Shown here piece after piece: positions 37,119 to 45,397 of a stretch of 64,000 nt of DNA (position 1 is the stretch's first letter; every line of letters starts with the position of its first letter). This DNA comes from Pseudoalteromonas distincta (GTDB lineage Bacteria; Pseudomonadota; Gammaproteobacteria; Enterobacterales; Alteromonadaceae). Both the position numbers and the translations under genes were made by a program. The stretch lies in the NCBI RefSeq assembly GCF_000814675.1, contig NZ_JWIG01000025.1, forward strand, positions 124,001 through 188,000. Reading direction: 5' to 3'. The notes below the pieces were generated by a model that saw nothing but the letters and a program-made list of their open reading frames with translations, did no database searches and was not told the DNA's origin.

Positions 37119-38204
37119 ATGTCTAGTGTTGTGATTTTTTGTCGTAGTGGTTTTGAAAACGATGCCGCTGCTGAAATAACGTTTCATGCTGCAGAGCAAG
37201 GTTTTGCAGGGTATGTAAAAGCAAAACCAAATACAGGTTATGTTGTTTACGAATGTTTTGAAGCGCATCACAGCGACGAAATAATCAAAAAAGTTGATTT
37301 TAAAAACATGGTGTTTGCACGTCAATGGTTTGCCGGCACATTACTTGAAAACATGCCAGTAGAGGACCGTGTGGGCGCAGTAGTTGAAGCTGCTAAAGAT
37401 TTTACATTATGCTCAGAACTGCGCGTTGAAACGCCAGACACAAACGAAGGCAAAGAGCTTTTAACGTTCTGTAAAAAAATCTCAACACCGCTTAAAAAAG
37501 CCCTCGAAAAACAAAATACTGTACTACGTGAGCCAAAAGCAAATCGCCCAGTAATGCATGTCATGTTTTTAACAAACAATACGGCTTATGTTGGTTACTC
37601 GTATAGCTTTAATAATTCTCCATTCTTCATGGGTATTTTGCGCCTTCGTATGCCAAGCGATGCACCGAGTCGCTCAACGTTAAAACTCGATGAAGCATTT
37701 AACGTATTTATACCTGAGCAACAACGCGAGTCACGCGTAGCTGCCGGTATGCGCAGTGTTGATTTAGGTGCATGCCCAGGTGGTTGGACTTATCAGCTTG
37801 TACGCCGTGGTATGTTTGTAAGTGCGATTGATAACGGCCCAATGAATGACGATTTAATGCAAACTGGGCAAGTTAAACATTTTAGAGCCGACGGTTTTAA
37901 ATATCGCCCAGAAAAAAGAAATATTACTTGGTTAGTATGCGATATGGTGGAAAAACCGACCAAAGTGACTACGCTAATGATTGACTGGGCAGTAAATGCA
38001 TACGCAAAAGAGTTTATATTTAACTTAAAACTGCCTATGAAAAAACGCTTTGATAGTGTTTATGAATGTCTTTCGATGATCAGAAAAGAGCTTGAGAAAC
38101 AAGGTATCAATTACGAGTTGCAAGCTAAACATCTATATCATGATCGTGAGGAAATAACCGTTCATTTAAACGTTACTAAGGTGCCACAAAATTTGTATAG
38201 TTAA
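37119..38204 (+). CDS. rlmM: 23S rRNA (cytidine-2498-2'-O)-methyltransferase
   Basis: A 361-residue SAM-dependent enzyme that 2'-O-methylates C2498 of 23S rRNA. An N-terminal THUMP-like domain (about 1-170) precedes the Rossmann-like methyltransferase domain, with DLGACPGGWTYQLVRRG as the SAM motif and WLVCDMVEKP as motif IV. The catalytic KDKE-type Lys in FNLKLPMKKR is visible. Length matches E. coli YgdE. The lipoprotein gene begins 16 bases later but is functionally unrelated. Confidence 0.96.
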   Translation: MSSVVIFCRSGFENDAAAEITFHAAEQGFAGYVKAKPNTGYVVYECFEAHHSDEIIKKVDFKNMVFARQWFAGTLLENMPVEDRVGAVVEAAKDFTLCSELRVETPDTNEGKELLTFCKKISTPLKKALEKQNTVLREPKANRPVMHVMFLTNNTAYVGYSYSFNNSPFFMGILRLRMPSDAPSRSTLKLDEAFNVFIPEQQRESRVAAGMRSVDLGACPGGWTYQLVRRGMFVSAIDNGPMNDDLMQTGQVKHFRADGFKYRPEKRNITWLVCDMVEKPTKVTTLMIDWAVNAYAKEFIFNLKLPMKKRFDSVYECLSMIRKELEKQGINYELQAKHLYHDREEITVHLNVTKVPQNLYS

Positions 38205-38220: not shown

Positions 38221-41200
38221 GTGGTAAAAAACAATATTAATAAATGGCTAAGTTTACTTTTTTTATCACTTTTAATCACAGGTTGTGGCGGGGGAGGCGA
38301 AAGTAGTGATACAACTACGCCCTCTGGTAACGCTGCGCCCAGTGTTACGCTTTCGGTTAGCAGTAACGTTATTACTTCTAATCAATCATTTACTATTACA
38401 GCGCTTGCAAGTGATAGCGACGGACAAATTGCCAGCTATCAATGGCAACAACTTAGCGGGCCCGAGTTTACGTTTACCTCTAACGGTAACACGCTTACAG
38501 CCACTGCACCTAGTGTAACAACCGATACGACCTTTAGCTTTTCGGTTACAGTTACTGACAACTCAGGTGCTACTGCACAACAAGTTTTTTCAGGCACTAT
38601 CACCTCTCAAAATAATGCTCCTACAGTTAATATAACAGGCCCAAGTAGTGCACTTGCCAGCACACAAGTTAGTTTAGTTGCTAACGCTCAAGATACAGAT
38701 GGCACTATAAGTAATATTAATTGGATTCAGTCTGCTGGGGACAATGTTGAGTTTTCACAAACTGATGGAGTCCTTAGTTTTACCGCCCCTAATGTATCTG
38801 AAAATACAACACTAGGTTTTAGCGTAACCGTAACTGACAATGCAGGTAAAAGCGCTCAAGCGAGTAAAACGGTTTTAATTAATCAAGTAAATAGCGCGCC
38901 AACAGTCATTGTTACAGGCCCTGAAGAAGCTGAAAAAGGTGACAGTGTAACCTTAGTTGCAGATGCACAAGACAGCGATGGTAGTATTAATAGCATAACT
39001 TGGCAGCAAATAAGTGGTCCTGTAGTTGAACTTACTCAAACACAAACAAGCATTAGCTTTAATGCGCCCACTGTTTCACAAAATACCAATGTTACATTTG
39101 TGGTTACTGTAACCGATGACGATAATGCTACAAATAGCGCTCAAAAAACAGTTGCAGTATTAGCACCAAACAATCCACCAACTGCAGATGATGTAAGTAT
39201 TAGCGTGCAATATAATCAAGCCACAGAATTTAGTTTAGTAGTTAGCGATGCCGATAACGATACCGTTCAGATTGATTTTGGTGATGATTTAAATGGTGCA
39301 AAAATTAGTGTTATTGATGCACAAGCCTTACTTTTTAGCTACACACCTCCTGCAAACAGTATAACTTCACAAAGCTATACGTTAACTGCGTCTGATTCAA
39401 AAGACACAACCGAATTTACCCTGAATATTACTGTGGTTGATTCAACGCCCGCTACAATTAGTAATGTAACACCCCAAAGTAATAATGACCCAGTTCTTGT
39501 AGATAGCCCTGTTAGTATTACATTTTCAGATATTATGCTAACGAGCACTTTAGCAGTTAATTCTAGTAGTGGTGCTTGTACAGGAAGTGTACAAGTGTCG
39601 GCAGATAATTTTACTACTTGCTTGGCCTTAAATATTGAAAGTTTGTCGGGTACTACTAGTGACACAAGTACTTATTTTCATACTGTAAATGTAAGCGCAA
39701 GCTTTAATGAAGATAGCCAATATATCGTCCGTGTTACAGCTGATTTAACTAATTTTGATGATACGGCCATTGAAACGCAAACCGCTACTTCTTTTACTAC
39801 CTCTAGCCAAGATATAAAAATAACTGAAGTTTCTTCTGTGCAATTTAGTAACGACTTACCTTGGATTGAAATTTATAACGGCACAGGGGCAGCTGTAAAC
39901 TTACAGAGTTATTCGCTTAAAACCCGCAGTATTAATATGATTAATAGCTCGACTAGTGCGCAGACAACTTTTTCACTGCCCAATAAAGAGCTTGAAAATG
40001 GTGAGTACCTTATTTTACAAAGCAAGTTTGGAGATGATTTTTTAGTCAATGCATCAGTTAACAACCCTAAAATAGCGCTTGTGGGTAATGCTAGTGATGA
40101 AATTAGACCTTATTGGTACATAAACGGTTTCGTAGAATTACTTAATAGTGCAGGTACACAAACAATCGACTTTGTAAAATTTGGTAACTCAGTACAAGAA
40201 CCAGTAACGCCATCACAATGGCAAGGTGGTAACGCAGAGCAAATCATCTCCGAGCAAGGAGGCAGCTTAAAGCGCGAGCTTAATGCGACAGACACTAATC
40301 AAAGTACTGATTGGAGTTATTCTGTGTTTAACACACCCGCTGGGCCAAACAATATAAATTGCACAATAGATGATGATGAGGATGGTATTCCTGATTGCGC
40401 TGAGCAACAGGGTACAACATTCGCGGGTTTACCACTTTATGAGTGGGGGGCGCGTACCTCACAAAAAGATATATTTATTGAAGTTGATTATATGGACAGC
40501 ACTGATGTAGGTATTACTCCACATCGAACTGCACTTGAAAAAGTAGCCACTGTTTTTGCAGGAAAAGGCTATACAGTCCACTTTGACGTAGGTGATTTGT
40601 TTGATCGAAATACAAATACAGCACCGCAAAACTTTGATTTAGGTGGCGGAAATCTTGTCCCTTTTAACAGCTATACCCCGTTTGAATACGATTTAAGTAG
40701 CCCTAATTTATTTGCTTATAAAATGGAATTTAGCGATATAACTCGCAGGCCCATTTTCCATTATTTATTAATGGCAAGTAGTGGTAACGAAGACGGTAGT
40801 ATTAGTGGGTCGGGTATTGCTGAGATAAGCGGTAATGATTTAATGGTAACTATGGGGGGCTGGGGTTTAACGCTTGATACGCAGGTAGCAACCAATGTAA
40901 CTTATAATTATCAAGCATCAACAATATTTCATGAGTTAGGTCATAACTTAGGTTTATACCATGGCGGTGATGAAGAAGTTAATTTTAAGCCTAATCATTT
41001 AAGCTCTATGAACTATTTATATCAATTAGCGGGTTTATCAACAATAGGTAATAACGAAGGCGATCGCTACTATGAGCGTTTTTACCCAGGCAATGCTAGT
41101 TGCGATATTGCACCAAATACTAATAGTCATTTAGGCTCTACGGATGATTTTATTATTGATTATTCAAATGGTAGTTCAGCAGATTTAAATGAAAGCACCA

Positions 41201-41529
41201 TACTTGAAGTACAGGGGTTAAATAGAAATAGCTCACTACCAGTTGATTTTAATTGTAATGCAATTAACACCGAAAGCTTAACCAGCTTTGATACTAACCA
41301 AGATAATACAATATCAATACTGAGTGATGTAGATGAGTGGAGCGTGCTTAATTTACAGTTTTATATGCAAAGTGCAGGTAATCGATTTGGCGTGCCAAAT
41401 ACAAATAACAGTAAGGTGCATAATTTACAAAGCTCGCCTGCTAATATTGAAACGCTGCCCAGTTATATAAAAGAAGCACAGCCAAGTAGTGCAATTATTG
41501 CTGAATTAAAAGCAATTAAAGAGCAATAG
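38221..41529 (+). CDS. Lipoprotein metzincin protease with PKD-like repeats and lamin-tail-like domain
   Basis: A 1102-residue surface lipoprotein starting at GTG. Lipobox LLITGCGGGG (acylated Cys about residue 22). Three PKD-like repeats follow (about 38-122, 128-220, 221-310), each with a DxDG and a V-TVTD pattern. Next come a cadherin-like segment (about 315-405), an SbsA-like Ig domain (about 410-520) and a lamin-tail-like domain (ITEVSSVQFSNDLPWIEIYN, about 525-700). A Ca-binding DDDEDGIPDCAEQQG leads to a protease domain. That domain has HELGHNLGLYH (His904, Glu905, His908, His914) and a metzincin Met-turn SSMNYLY about 20 residues on. It likely digests proteins or polymers at the cell surface. 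A 1-base gap leads to the partner gene. Confidence 0.85.
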   Translation: MVKNNINKWLSLLFLSLLITGCGGGGESSDTTTPSGNAAPSVTLSVSSNVITSNQSFTITALASDSDGQIASYQWQQLSGPEFTFTSNGNTLTATAPSVTTDTTFSFSVTVTDNSGATAQQVFSGTITSQNNAPTVNITGPSSALASTQVSLVANAQDTDGTISNINWIQSAGDNVEFSQTDGVLSFTAPNVSENTTLGFSVTVTDNAGKSAQASKTVLINQVNSAPTVIVTGPEEAEKGDSVTLVADAQDSDGSINSITWQQISGPVVELTQTQTSISFNAPTVSQNTNVTFVVTVTDDDNATNSAQKTVAVLAPNNPPTADDVSISVQYNQATEFSLVVSDADNDTVQIDFGDDLNGAKISVIDAQALLFSYTPPANSITSQSYTLTASDSKDTTEFTLNITVVDSTPATISNVTPQSNNDPVLVDSPVSITFSDIMLTSTLAVNSSSGACTGSVQVSADNFTTCLALNIESLSGTTSDTSTYFHTVNVSASFNEDSQYIVRVTADLTNFDDTAIETQTATSFTTSSQDIKITEVSSVQFSNDLPWIEIYNGTGAAVNLQSYSLKTRSINMINSSTSAQTTFSLPNKELENGEYLILQSKFGDDFLVNASVNNPKIALVGNASDEIRPYWYINGFVELLNSAGTQTIDFVKFGNSVQEPVTPSQWQGGNAEQIISEQGGSLKRELNATDTNQSTDWSYSVFNTPAGPNNINCTIDDDEDGIPDCAEQQGTTFAGLPLYEWGARTSQKDIFIEVDYMDSTDVGITPHRTALEKVATVFAGKGYTVHFDVGDLFDRNTNTAPQNFDLGGGNLVPFNSYTPFEYDLSSPNLFAYKMEFSDITRRPIFHYLLMASSGNEDGSISGSGIAEISGNDLMVTMGGWGLTLDTQVATNVTYNYQASTIFHELGHNLGLYHGGDEEVNFKPNHLSSMNYLYQLAGLSTIGNNEGDRYYERFYPGNASCDIAPNTNSHLGSTDDFIIDYSNGSSADLNESTILEVQGLNRNSSLPVDFNCNAINTESLTSFDTNQDNTISILSDVDEWSVLNLQFYMQSAGNRFGVPNTNNSKVHNLQSSPANIETLPSYIKEAQPSSAIIAELKAIKEQ

Positions 41530-41530
41530 T

Positions 41531-42052
41531 ATGAAGCCAATGCTAAGCACTAAGTTTATTATCTTGAGTAGTTTTTTTAGCTTACTAATAGCGTGTAGTG
41601 ATACTAACAATGCACGTGAGTGGTTACTAAAAAATGATAATTTGTATTATAAAAATACAGCTGTTGACTGGCGAATTGAATCAGTAAAGGACTGTAATAC
41701 ATGCGTTATAAGCCAAGATGTTGTTTATCAGCCTGAAGGTATTAGTCGTTATAATACGTTAATGCAGAGTAAGAATTGGGTCGCGGTACATGAACTAAGT
41801 AAAATCAATGTCATTCGTTTAAAGATGCCAGACCAAACACCTTATTTATACGTAGAGCGTGTAAAAGGTCAAATACTAAAGCTGTTTGATCAGCATCAAA
41901 ACTACAGTATAAAAATTGGTGAAGTTACAGCCGTTAATATTAATAATCAGCGCTTTAGTATTTTGATTAAAAAATTTGAAGAAGTAGATAAACAAAGCGA
42001 TGCATTACCAAGGCGTGCATCGCTTGAGTTTATTGCTTTAAAAATAGATTAA
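41531..42052 (+). CDS. Small lipoprotein coupled to the metzincin gene
   Basis: A 173-residue lipoprotein with signal peptide and lipobox LIAC (Cys about residue 22). The mature part has a Cys pair in DCNTCVIS and a beta-rich, basic body. I do not recognise a domain. It begins one base after the stop of the protease gene, so translation is coupled. That suggests a role together, perhaps as inhibitor, chaperone or surface partner; this is inference from position only. Confidence 0.7.
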   Translation: MKPMLSTKFIILSSFFSLLIACSDTNNAREWLLKNDNLYYKNTAVDWRIESVKDCNTCVISQDVVYQPEGISRYNTLMQSKNWVAVHELSKINVIRLKMPDQTPYLYVERVKGQILKLFDQHQNYSIKIGEVTAVNINNQRFSILIKKFEEVDKQSDALPRRASLEFIALKID

Positions 42053-42073
42053 AAAGCACCTTAGGTGCTTTTT
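42051..42073. terminator. Bidirectional terminator between convergent genes
   Basis: AAAAAGCACC/GGTGCTTTTT stem with a 3-base loop. T-runs flank it in both directions, so it can serve the lipoprotein gene and cysZ. Confidence 0.8.
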
Positions 42074-42123
42074 AATCTAGGGTGCGGTGTCCTTCGAATA
42101 TTGAAAAGTCAGCAACCTTTTAA

Positions 42124-42852
42124 TTAACTGCGATATTTTGGACGATAGTTATCTACCCATAAACGTGTTGCGCCGCACACTGCGACTGGCATAACTATTA
42201 AGTTTATAAAAGGGATAGCAGTTAACAACATAACAGCAAAACCAAATCCGTATGACAAACCTTGCTTAGATTTTAAATCGTCTTTCATTTGCTTAAAGTC
42301 AATTTTATGATTATCAAACGCATAGTCTTCGTATTGAACTGCGTACATCCAACAAGTAAACAACACCCATAGTATTTGACCAATGACCGGTAAAACCCAT
42401 AACAATATAAAAAAGCCAATTGCGCGAGGAAGGTAGTAGCATAGTTTTGTCCACTCACGGGCAAGCATGCGAGGTATATCTTTAACTAGTTCGGTAAAGC
42501 CGTCATCGTTAATTTTTTGACCTGTTAGGTAAAGCTCAACTTTTTCACTCAAGAGCGCATTGAAAGGGGCTGCAATAAAATTAGTGATAACTGTAAAGAG
42601 CATACTATAGCTAAACAAAACAACTAATACAGCAATAGGCCACATTAGCCACTCTAACCAGCTTAACCACTCGGGGAGCATGTTGTTTATGTAGCTAAAA
42701 CTATCACTTAACCAGCCAACTAAAAAAAACAGCGAGCTACCAAACAGCAAAATATTAATTAATAGCGGAATAAGGACAAAACGCTTTAGCCCTTTTTGGC
42801 TAATTAATTTAAACCCCGAAAAAAAGTATTCCATACCTTGTGTGATCTGCAC
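42124..42852 (-). CDS. cysZ: Sulfate uptake protein CysZ, GTG start
   Basis: A 242-residue inner-membrane protein of the CysZ/EI24 family that takes up sulfate for cysteine synthesis. It has the N-terminal GMEYFFSGFKLIS, several hydrophobic helices, and the AVQYEDYAFDNHK and GLSYGFGFAVML stretches. GAGG lies 5 bases before the GTG start. E. coli cysZ lies next to zipA and ligA. Here zipA and ligA are in the same window but 19 kb away and next to smc. Confidence 0.92.
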   Translation of the reverse strand: MQITQGMEYFFSGFKLISQKGLKRFVLIPLLINILLFGSSLFFLVGWLSDSFSYINNMLPEWLSWLEWLMWPIAVLVVLFSYSMLFTVITNFIAAPFNALLSEKVELYLTGQKINDDGFTELVKDIPRMLAREWTKLCYYLPRAIGFFILLWVLPVIGQILWVLFTCWMYAVQYEDYAFDNHKIDFKQMKDDLKSKQGLSYGFGFAVMLLTAIPFINLIVMPVAVCGATRLWVDNYRPKYRS

Positions 42853-43144: not shown

Positions 43145-45397
43145 ATGGGTACGGATAGGTTAAAAAAGTTATTATCTCACCAGCAAGGCATTTTATCTAA
43201 AATAGCATTAGGGGTACCTTTAAGTGAGGTGCTTACTGAAATTTGTTCATCAATCGAGCAGATTATTGATGATGAATCCGCTAGGTGTTCAATCTTATCA
43301 GTTAAAGGCCAGCAGCTTTTTCATTGCGCAGCTCCTAATATTCATCCAGAGTACTGTAGTTTGCTTAATGGAGTCTATATAGGGCCAAAAGTGGGCTCAT
43401 GTGGTACTACTGCATTTTCGAAATCGCGCACTATTGTTGAAAATATCGAAACTTCACCGCTGTGGGAGGACTTTAAAGACTTAGCACTAAAGTTTGGTCT
43501 TAAGTCATGTTGGTCAACGCCTATTTTTTCAACTCAAGCCGATTTATTAGGCACCTTTGCTATCTATCACAGCACTCCTAAATCACCATCAAAGCAAGAT
43601 TTAGAGTTAATCGATTTTTTTGTGCACTTTTCTAGTATCGCTCTTGAAAAAAGTAACGAATTTAACAAAGCAAAACAGCTTCTCGCGAATTTACAGCAAA
43701 GTAATGAAAAGTTTAAAGCCTTCACTAAGGTAATGCCCGATCTCATCCTTATTTTAAGTGAAGAGGGAATTTATACCGATGTGTATGGTACCTCTAATGA
43801 GTTACTGCTTGATTCAAGCAAGGACCTTATTGGTCAAAGTGTTAAGGACCTGCTCTCCCAAGACGATGCACAAATGATAATGGACGTTATTAAAAAAACA
43901 CTCTCGACTAACGAGACGCAAATTTTTGAATATGAATTAGCTGTACCAAAGGGCAATATAGTTTTTGAAGGCAGGGCTGCTGCATTAGATCATTACCACC
44001 CCAATAGTCCTACAAAAAGGCACGTAGTATGGATGGCCAGAGATATTTCAATAAAGAAAAAGGCCGAACAAGAAGTACATAAGCTTGCCTTTTACGACCC
44101 ATTAACGAATCTTCCAAATAGAAGAATGCTTAGCGACAGATTAAGCATGTGTGTGGAGAGTGTTAAGCGAGATAAAAATATAGGGGCGTTATTATTTTTA
44201 GACCTAGATAATTTTAAGCGTATTAATGACTCACTTGGGCACAGTGCGGGTGATGAAGTACTTGTGGAATTATCAAAAAGGTTAAGCGCAATAATAAAAG
44301 GATCTGATACGTTGGCCAGAGCGGGTGGCGATGAGTTTATTATTTTACTAAAACACGTTGGAGAAAATACACAGCAGGCGAGCATCAAGTGCAAAATAGT
44401 AGCCAAAGAGATTCAAAGAGCTTTTCATGATAAATTTGAAGTGGGCAACCTTGCATTTCAAGTAAGCTGCAGCATAGGTATTTGTCTAATTGATAGCGTA
44501 AATGCGCAGGCAGGCAATATATTAAAATTTGCAGACACGGCTATGTATCGTTCTAAAAATAAAGGGGGGAATAGCAGTAGCTTTTACGATCCAGCCTTAC
44601 AAACACTGCTTGAAAAACAAACTGAACTAGAAACCGATATAGTCAGAGCGATTGCATCTGATGAGTTTTGTGCTTATTTTCAGCCTCAGGTAAATACGTA
44701 TGGTGATGTTATTGGTGCTGAAGCACTCATTAGGTGGAACCATCCTCAAAAAGGGTTAATAGCGGCAAACGAATTTATACCAATTGCAGAGCAATACGGG
44801 CTTATTCAAAAACTACAAAATATTGTTTTACATGATATATGTATTTTAATAAACGAACTTAAAGCAGATAACATAATTGACGACTCGTTTAGTGTTTCAA
44901 TTAATATTAGTCAAAGCCAGTTTAATTCATCAAATTTAAAAGGAGAGCTGTTTAGCACTATCAATAAATTTGATATTCGAGCGCAGCAAATTAAGTTAGA
45001 AATAACTGAGTCAATGCTCTCAAGCGATATAGATTATACAATTAGACAAATGAAAGAACTCATTGCCGCTGGCTTTTTATTTTCGATTGATGATTTCGGA
45101 ACCGGTTACTCCTGCTTAGCGTACTTAAGTGCGTTTCCTGTTAAAGAATTAAAAATAGATAAAAGCTTTATTGATAAAATTTTAGATAGCACGGTTGGCT
45201 TTAATATTGCGCAAACAATTATCAGCCTAGGAAAAAGCTTAAACTTAGAGGTAGTTGCTGAGGGCGTAGAAACAACAGAACAATATGACTTACTTAAAAA
45301 AATGAATATTGACGCCATGCAAGGCTACTTAATTGCAAGGCCGATGGATAAAGAAGGCTATGCAAAATGGCATAGCGCTAATACCAATGCGCAATAA
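43145..45397 (+). CDS. GAF-PAS-GGDEF-EAL cyclic-di-GMP protein
   Basis: A 750-residue cytoplasmic signalling protein. A GAF-like domain (about 18-165, with GPKVGSCGTTAF typical of this GAF type) and a PAS domain (about 190-300) precede GGDEF and EAL modules. Both catalytic motifs are complete: ARAGGDEFIILL and GAEALIRWNHP, with DDFGTGYSCLAYL and AEGVETTEQYDLL. It lacks membrane segments, so it senses a cytoplasmic cue. AAAGGA lies before the ATG. It could make or hydrolyse c-di-GMP; the net activity cannot be read from the sequence. Confidence 0.93.
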   Translation: MGTDRLKKLLSHQQGILSKIALGVPLSEVLTEICSSIEQIIDDESARCSILSVKGQQLFHCAAPNIHPEYCSLLNGVYIGPKVGSCGTTAFSKSRTIVENIETSPLWEDFKDLALKFGLKSCWSTPIFSTQADLLGTFAIYHSTPKSPSKQDLELIDFFVHFSSIALEKSNEFNKAKQLLANLQQSNEKFKAFTKVMPDLILILSEEGIYTDVYGTSNELLLDSSKDLIGQSVKDLLSQDDAQMIMDVIKKTLSTNETQIFEYELAVPKGNIVFEGRAAALDHYHPNSPTKRHVVWMARDISIKKKAEQEVHKLAFYDPLTNLPNRRMLSDRLSMCVESVKRDKNIGALLFLDLDNFKRINDSLGHSAGDEVLVELSKRLSAIIKGSDTLARAGGDEFIILLKHVGENTQQASIKCKIVAKEIQRAFHDKFEVGNLAFQVSCSIGICLIDSVNAQAGNILKFADTAMYRSKNKGGNSSSFYDPALQTLLEKQTELETDIVRAIASDEFCAYFQPQVNTYGDVIGAEALIRWNHPQKGLIAANEFIPIAEQYGLIQKLQNIVLHDICILINELKADNIIDDSFSVSINISQSQFNSSNLKGELFSTINKFDIRAQQIKLEITESMLSSDIDYTIRQMKELIAAGFLFSIDDFGTGYSCLAYLSAFPVKELKIDKSFIDKILDSTVGFNIAQTIISLGKSLNLEVVAEGVETTEQYDLLKKMNIDAMQGYLIARPMDKEGYAKWHSANTNAQ

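What the first reader, a model, noticed from the sequence alone, without database searches (positions are those of the whole stretch)
38221..42052. PKD/lamin-tail/metzincin lipoprotein coupled to a small lipoprotein
Seen: a 1102-residue lipoprotein ending in a HELGHNLGLYH zinc motif with a Met-turn, joined to a 173-residue lipoprotein through a one-base gap. Known: metzincins need HExxHxxGxxH plus the Met-turn. Inference: a surface-held protease with a dedicated partner, which could be an inhibitor, a folding factor or a co-receptor. The combination with a lamin-tail-like domain and PKD repeats suggests polymer or cell-surface binding.
Basis: partly seen in the sequence, partly recalled or inferred. 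Interest (0 to 1): 0.55.

Follow-up and report, generated by a model that had tools for sequence, protein, structure and literature searches.

The report
Surface protease with a dedicated partner
A marine bacterium encodes a zinc protease that is probably tethered to the cell surface, together with a small membrane-anchored partner protein that has travelled with it through much of its bacterial group and probably helps fold it or keeps it switched off until it is exported.

Summary
In detail: a 1102-residue lipoprotein (PKD repeats, lamin-tail domain, HExxHxxGxxH with Met-turn) is followed after one base by a 173-residue lipoprotein. The first impression that the small gene is unique (2 of 295 genomes at E<=0.001, the other a 28%-identical partial match) is wrong. 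It belongs to a fast-evolving, undescribed family with an invariant CxxC. That family sits directly behind the protease in 27 of 80 related loci, and as a Cys-free, non-lipidated homologue in 4 Burkholderiales loci. In 108 Pseudoalteromonas-genus genomes all 27 with the protease have the partner; in 5 of these it is on another contig. Six genomes have the partner alone. The two trees mirror each other (r 0.88). The protease has the Gly-rich post-lipobox motif reported for lipoproteins exported by type II secretion; the partner mostly lacks it. I read the pair as an exported surface metzincin with a periplasmic, membrane-anchored chaperone/inhibitor, resembling CpaA-CpaB in arrangement without detected homology. 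Against: about ten related proteases lack the partner, eleven genomes keep it alone, and the complex prediction failed.

The parts
38221..41529 (+). Protease lipoprotein, 1102 aa: lipobox, PKD/cadherin-like repeats, lamin-tail domain, Ca-type motif, metzincin-type catalytic domain
38221..38298 (+). Signal peptide and lipobox (LITG-C22), followed by the Gly-rich stretch GGGGESS
   Evidence: compared with the sorting motif described in PMC12802150
38332..39432 (+). Three K319L-like PKD repeats, then a Big_9/cadherin-like repeat
   Evidence: boundaries approximate
39799..40176 (+). Lamin-tail domain (LTD), residues 527-652
   Evidence: 35.3 bits, cut-off 34.3
40369..40395 (+). DDDEDGIPD, Asp-rich motif that looks calcium-binding, conserved in the family
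   Evidence: D27, D29, D31, I33, P34, D35 invariant in 32 rows; the calcium role is inferred
40930..40962 (+). Zinc-binding motif HELGHNLGLYH
41002..41016 (+). Met-turn SSMNY
   Evidence: M240 invariant in 32 rows
41531..42052 (+). Partner lipoprotein, 173 aa, all-beta fold predicted (pLDDT 85.6)
41693..41704 (+). CNTC: the invariant CxxC of the partner family (C55, C58)
   Evidence: invariant in 30 rows
42045..42079 (.). Stem-loop followed by T, likely terminator between the pair and the convergent gene at 42124-42852
   Evidence: seven terminator-like sites found in the stretch, shuffle mean 5.0, so weak by itself

Best explanation
The two genes form a coupled protease-partner module. The big protein is a zinc endopeptidase of the metzincin type. 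[quoted passage not shown] The small protein is a beta-sheet lipoprotein that stays in the periplasm, anchored by its lipid. It binds the newly exported protease, helps it fold and/or covers its active site until export, and so serves as a detached pro-domain. Shown: the genes, the motifs, conserved linkage, co-inheritance even when unlinked, and the difference in post-lipobox sequence. Inferred: surface location, the T2SS route, physical binding, and the chaperone/inhibitor action.
For: Partner directly behind the protease in 27 of 80 related loci, with gaps of -32 to +4 bases, several with 4- to 32-base overlaps. In 108 genus genomes: both 27, protease only 0, partner only 6, neither 75 (Fisher p 5e-20, not corrected for kinship). 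In 5 of the 27 the partner lies on another contig (two of these are two-contig assemblies) yet is kept; for the three genomes with an unlinked pair that were placed in both trees, protease and partner take matching positions beside L027/L028. Distance matrices correlate (r 0.88 for 31 pairs, 0.81 for 19 thinned pairs; 0 of 5000 permutations as high). G/S/D/N residues in the 7 positions after the lipobox Cys: mean 5.29 in the protease against 2.64 in the partner, higher in the protease in 23 of 28 pairs. This is the kind of motif required for T2SS/GspN-dependent surface lipoproteins in PMC12802150 (passages). GspN in 107 of 108 genus genomes, own genome included. The Burkholderiales homologue of the partner is non-lipidated while its protease keeps a GGGGG lipobox, so the partner need not be on the surface. 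Precedent: CpaB, membrane-anchored, encoded directly downstream of the T2SS metzincin CpaA, needed for its secretion, its tail blocking the active site (PMC4713064 and PMC7542363, passages). No pro-domain is apparent between LTD and catalytic domain (inference).
Against: Eleven of 46 rows in the near protease clade have no partner (L014, L038, L041, L046, L047, L049, L050, L051, L057, L058, L059). The genomes of nine of these were searched and had none. L038, L041, L049 and L014 carry similar lipobox tails, so the partner is not essential for such proteases in general. The partner survives without the protease in 11 genomes, odd for a pure dedicated chaperone. The fused prediction of catalytic domain plus partner gave pTM 0.55 and no confident complex. 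The partner model has no clear match in the PDB, and no relation to CpaB was detected. In L043 and L048 the protease's own motif is poor. Almost every genome of the genus has GspN, so its presence discriminates nothing.
Confidence: 0.45

Rival explanations
1. The partner is purely an inhibitor (immunity) protein. It protects the periplasm from the bacterium's own or foreign metzincins and has no role in folding or export.
For: Asymmetry in the genus: protease never without partner (0 of 27), partner without protease in 6 of 33. The nine loners read are intact ORFs that nest inside operon-linked partners in two separate places, as expected if the protease can be lost but the guard is harmless. 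Fast evolution, about 3.2 times the catalytic domain. An all-beta protein encoded directly downstream of the protease recalls the serralysin inhibitor (recalled).
Against: No member matches any Pfam inhibitor family at E<=1. About ten related proteases do without it. The same asymmetry fits a chaperone.
Confidence: 0.25
2. The partner is a surface co-receptor or substrate-capture subunit working with the protease outside the cell.
For: Both are predicted lipoproteins in most loci.
Against: The partner lacks the Gly/Asp-rich post-lipobox motif in most pairs. The Burkholderiales homologue has no lipobox, while the protease there keeps one.
Confidence: 0.12
3. The partner is an independent envelope lipoprotein, perhaps a redox or stress sensor, that is merely co-transcribed.
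For: Eleven genomes keep it without the protease. It has an invariant CxxC. Its profile reached one NlpE-type lipoprotein at E 9e-5 over 84 positions.
Against: 27 of 27 co-occurrence, retention after unlinking and matching trees. None of the 30 members matches the NlpE model at E<=1. The Burkholderiales homologue lacks the cysteines.
Confidence: 0.1

Closest known systems
CpaA-CpaB of Acinetobacter (T2SS metzincin and its membrane-anchored chaperone)
   Same: Metzincin followed directly downstream by a small membrane-anchored, periplasm-facing protein found with it
   Different: CpaA is a soluble secreted enzyme and CpaB has a transmembrane anchor; here the protease is a lipoprotein and the partner is a lipoprotein (or, in Burkholderiales, non-lipidated). 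No sequence or fold relation between partner and CpaB was detected. CpaA itself is reached only over the zinc site (6o38, E 0.1)
T2SS-dependent surface lipoproteins InvL (A. baumannii) and PulA (K. pneumoniae)
   Same: Lipobox followed by a Gly/Ser/Asp-rich stretch, GspN in the host
   Different: InvL is an adhesin and PulA a pullulanase; the passages read describe no partner gene of this type; T2SS dependence is not tested here
Serralysin and its periplasmic inhibitor Inh/AprI (recalled)
   Same: Metzincin with a small extracytoplasmic beta protein encoded next door
   Different: Serralysins are soluble and leave by type I secretion; no Pfam inhibitor model matches any of 30 partners
fn3-type relatives in Colwellia and Pseudoalteromonas (L062, L065, L068, L069, L072-L074)
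   Same: Related catalytic domain
   Different: fn3 domains in place of PKD and LTD in the one scanned (L062); no partner next door and none in four of their genomes searched, those of L062/L072, L065, L068 and L069, at E<=0.01

Membership tests
Metzincin clan | HExxHxxGxxH zinc motif | tested here: met
   HELGHNLGLYH; both H of HExxH, E and the third H invariant in 32 of 32 rows
Metzincin clan | Met-turn downstream of the zinc motif | tested here: met
   SSMNY, M240 invariant in 32 of 32 rows
Metzincin clan | Metzincin fold | tested here: inconclusive
   catalytic part of the fused model poorly resolved; VIA rows covered only the partner part
Peptidase M12B-like (PF13582 Reprolysin_3) | Score over Pfam's gathering cut-off | tested here: not met
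   window 21.4 bits, cut-off 22.4; relatives L043 24.1 and L038 24.9 pass, so a near relation is likely
Lamin-tail domain (PF00932) | Score over Pfam's gathering cut-off | tested here: met
   35.3 bits, cut-off 34.3; over cut-off in 8 of 9 further clade proteases scanned, L044 at 31.2 below
T2SS surface lipoprotein | Lipobox plus Gly/Ser- or Asn/Asp-rich stretch after Cys | tested here: met
   LITGC-GGGGESS
T2SS surface lipoprotein | GspN in the host | tested here: met
   G000:C11, E 5e-54
T2SS surface lipoprotein | Surface exposure dependent on GspD/GspN | not testable with these tools
   needs bench work
CpaB-type chaperone | Encoded adjacent to its T2SS protease and membrane-anchored | tested here: met
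   the anchor is a lipid, not a transmembrane segment
CpaB-type chaperone | Sequence or fold relation to CpaB | tested here: inconclusive
   no 6o38 chain among PDB sequence hits up to E 10, none in the 50 VIA rows shown
CpaB-type chaperone | Loss abolishes secretion of the protease | not testable with these tools
   needs bench work
NlpE N-terminal domain (PF04170) | Pfam match | tested here: not met
   none of 30 partner members at E<=1
Partner family (gamma) and Burkholderiales partner | Profile homology | tested here: met
   hhalign score 41.6, probability 86.5; 200 column-shuffled controls reach at most 18.4

The most novel reading that the evidence does not exclude
A previously undescribed, fast-evolving family of membrane-anchored periplasmic proteins acts as detached pro-domain/chaperone for a lamin-tail metzincin that type II secretion places on the cell surface. 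It spans gamma- and betaproteobacteria, and it has twice escaped its operon to become a free-standing lipoprotein that outlives the protease.
Probability: 0.4. Interest if true: 0.65.

Novelty: new variant of a known kind. Interest (0 to 1): 0.5.

Why it matters
Few dedicated chaperones of type II secretion substrates are known, and in the passages read here none serves a surface-anchored lipoprotein protease. A conserved pair with a defined partner family, including unlinked and protease-free cases, gives a natural series for asking how a cell keeps a surface metalloprotease inactive in the periplasm and how protease-partner pairs come apart in evolution. The partner family had no curated Pfam or NCBIfam match here, so it would also name many hypothetical lipoproteins.

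Tried and rejected
Plain protein searches suggested the partner was unique to this genome (2 of 295 genomes, the second a 28%-identical partial match); the neighbours of divergent proteases showed that this was lack of sensitivity. The weak HerA match of the partner and the weak Pfam and PDB matches were taken as chance. A relation to NlpE was considered because one order-level hit was an NlpE-type protein (G340); it was dropped from the partner counts. Foldseek and VIA gave no clear fold match for the partner (best Z 4.8, rmsd 4.2, 98 residues; CpaB not listed); this does not show a new fold. The fused prediction did not settle binding, and its VIA look told nothing about the catalytic domain. 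Paper searches that found nothing: metzincin with lamin tail domain, and metzincin with lipoprotein and Pseudoalteromonas (0 papers each); lamin tail domain with metalloprotease (5 papers; the one opened, PMC7457808, one passage, concerns an unrelated 258-residue protein). Searches served as background only (listings). Rows left out before counts: the second copy of L031 and the L013 row; in the protease tree (73 rows) nine of the 80 fetched loci were left out, because no usable catalytic domain was read or they were set aside in the script, and L048 was read separately while the window and L014 were added; in genus counts the four weaker protease matches G726 (E 3e-82), G732, G734 and G167 (E about 1e-4), none of which has the partner.
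Full report
What is there. Two genes on the + strand: 38221-41529 (GTG start, 1102 aa) and 41531-42052 (173 aa), one base apart. The first starts 16 bases behind the 361-residue gene at 37119-38204, and a stem-loop with T tails lies behind the second, at 42045-42079. The first protein is a lipoprotein (LITG-C22-GGGGESS) with three K319L-like PKD repeats, a Big_9/cadherin-like repeat and a lamin-tail domain (35.3 bits, cut-off 34.3). A DxDxDGIPD motif and a catalytic domain with HELGHNLGLYH and the Met-turn SSMNY follow. The second is a lipoprotein (LIA-C22-SDTNNAR) with CNTC and no Pfam match at E<=1.

Is the catalytic domain a known family? Reprolysin_3 is the best Pfam model, just below its cut-off for the window (21.4 against 22.4), seen at E<=0.01 in 31 of 32 aligned relatives and above the cut-off in L043 and L038. 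A profile of 32 relatives reaches solved snake-venom metalloproteinases (best E 8e-4), matrixins and serralysins only around the zinc site, and CpaA at E 0.1. Zinc ligands, catalytic Glu and Met-turn are invariant in 32 of 32 rows, and the third His is followed by an invariant Gly-Gly. From recall, metzincin families are told apart by the residue after the third His; Gly there is not one of the classical ones I remember.

Is the small gene really a partner? A single-sequence search found it in only 2 of 295 genomes of the family, the second hit partial and 28% identical, while the protease domain was in 5 of 295. Reading the neighbours of the divergent proteases in L012 and L013 showed a small CxxC lipoprotein behind each, overlapping by 14 bases. 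A genome-wide profile scan returned 80 loci. In 27 of the 80 the next gene is a family member, with gaps from -32 to +4 bases. Hosts include Pseudoalteromonas, Shewanella, Parashewanella, Ferrimonas, Psychromonas, Vibrio penaeicida, Saccharospirillum, Reinekea, Aliikangiella and Kangiellaceae. Some loci are near-duplicates (L042/L045, L024/L025, L021/L022). In the stretches fetched, the profile found no other convincing family member except a second copy in L031, 806 bases further on. Across 30 members only C55, C58 and G70 are invariant, with K8, C22, L38 and P68 nearly so.

A remote branch. In the four Burkholderiales loci (L052-L055) the next gene (gaps -4, -4, 11, -4) encodes a 192-204 residue exported protein without lipobox or CxxC. 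Its profile aligns to the gamma family over 140 columns (probability 86.5). Two hundred column-shuffled versions score at most 18.4 against 41.6 observed, and the reversed one 9.9. The proteases there keep a Gly-rich lipobox.

Co-occurrence. In 108 genomes of the genus the partner is in 33. A strong protease match (E below 1e-150) is in 27, and all 27 have the partner. By contig and coordinates 22 are adjacent; in 5 (G693, G698, G703, G727, G728) the partner is on another contig, two of these being two-contig assemblies. Six have the partner alone: G255, G679, G704, G705, G737, G749. Fisher p is 5e-20, without correction for kinship. Four weaker protease matches (G726, G732, G734, G167) have no partner and were not counted. 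In an order-level draw of 388 genomes, 11 match the partner profile. One (G340) is an NlpE-type protein and is set aside; of the other ten, five have the protease and five do not. All five loners share a genus code with G514, whose hits are those of the Psychromonas genome of L039. Over both draws 30 of 41 partner genomes have the protease.

Unlinked and lone partners. In P. flavipulchra, P. peptidolytica and strain HM-SA03 the protease (L032, L033, L037) has no partner next door, but the genome holds one elsewhere. In the partner tree the unlinked and lone Pseudoalteromonas copies form one clade beside the linked copies of L027/L028/G186. In the protease tree L032/L033/L037 sit beside L027/L028 as well. 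The Psychromonas-type loners fall, with the linked copy of L039, beside the linked Vibrio copies. Nine of the eleven lone copies were in that tree (those of G704 and G255 were not). So the linked state is widespread and the loners look derived, in two places. Distances in the two trees correlate (r 0.88, 31 pairs; 0.81, 19 thinned pairs; no permutation of 5000 as high), and the partner changes about 3.2 times faster.

Proteases without partner. Of 46 rows in the near clade, 11 have none. The genomes of nine of them were searched with the partner profile without a hit; those of L051 and L058 were not. Several carry a similar lipobox tail (L038, L041, L049, and L014). Hence the partner is a rule in one part of the family, not a need of the fold.

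Where do the proteins go? PMC12802150 (passages read) reports that lipoproteins carried to the surface by type II secretion have a Gly/Ser-rich or Asn/Asp-rich stretch right after the lipobox Cys, required but not sufficient, and that GspN is needed. In 28 pairs (the window and 27 loci) I counted G, S, D and N in the seven residues after the Cys: mean 5.29 in proteases, 2.64 in partners; protease higher in 23, equal in 2, lower in 3 (Wilcoxon p 4e-5, rows not independent). GspN is in 107 of 108 genomes of the genus, the window's own included; being near-universal, it permits the reading but does not discriminate. I infer a surface protease and a periplasm-facing partner.

Structure. The partner alone folds confidently as an all-beta protein (pLDDT 85.6, pTM 0.77) with no clear PDB match. 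A single chain of catalytic domain and partner, read through the in-frame stop of L021, gave pTM 0.55 and low confidence in much of the catalytic part. It is inconclusive on binding.

How it most likely works. The nearest precedent is CpaA-CpaB. In the passages read, CpaB is encoded immediately downstream of the metzincin CpaA, is membrane-anchored, is required for CpaA secretion, and blocks the active site with its tail. The present pair has the same arrangement with an unrelated-looking partner and a lipid-anchored protease. No pro-domain is apparent between LTD and catalytic domain, so a separate protein that keeps the enzyme folded and quiet before export is a natural role (inference). The asymmetry (protease never without partner in the genus, partner sometimes alone) fits chaperone and inhibitor alike. 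The non-lipidated Burkholderiales homologue and the post-lipobox sequences speak against a surface co-receptor. PKD repeats vary and are missing in L043, so they are accessories; LTD passed its cut-off in 8 of 9 further clade proteases scanned.

Verdict. 'Protease with a dedicated partner' is well supported by comparative evidence. The function of the partner is a reasoned proposal awaiting a deletion and a binding test.

Noticed in passing
L031:8043-8549: Second partner copy 806 bases behind the protease of Shewanella corallii; it keeps CxxC but has no lipobox Cys.
   Followed up: partly
L194:1684-2184, L195:5408-5959, L196:3785-4306: Psychromonas-type lone or second partner copies lie directly behind a 504-505 residue gene that looks like comM/yifB (named by eye), a different and repeated neighbourhood.
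   Followed up: partly
L198-L200, L202, L114-L116: Lone and unlinked partners in one Pseudoalteromonas clade mostly share a neighbourhood with genes that look like PHA synthase and a TonB-type receptor (named by eye; L199 differs), so the gene was moved once and mostly stayed.
   Followed up: partly
L197:4818-5288: The partner profile reaches an NlpE-type lipoprotein (PF04170, 86 bits) through its PCADC region; possibly only a shared CxxC turn.
   Followed up: partly
L071:781-7485 and L096:943-7611: Relatives of about 2230 residues with HELGHIFGLSH followed by D, unlike the HGG of the main family.
   Followed up: no
L060, L061, L064, L091: Acidobacteriota relatives form a distinct clade beside the fn3-type proteases; Sulfidibacter corallicola has two.
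   Followed up: no
window 43145-45397: A 750-residue protein that looks by eye like a GGDEF-EAL sensor follows the convergent gene at 42124-42852.
   Followed up: no
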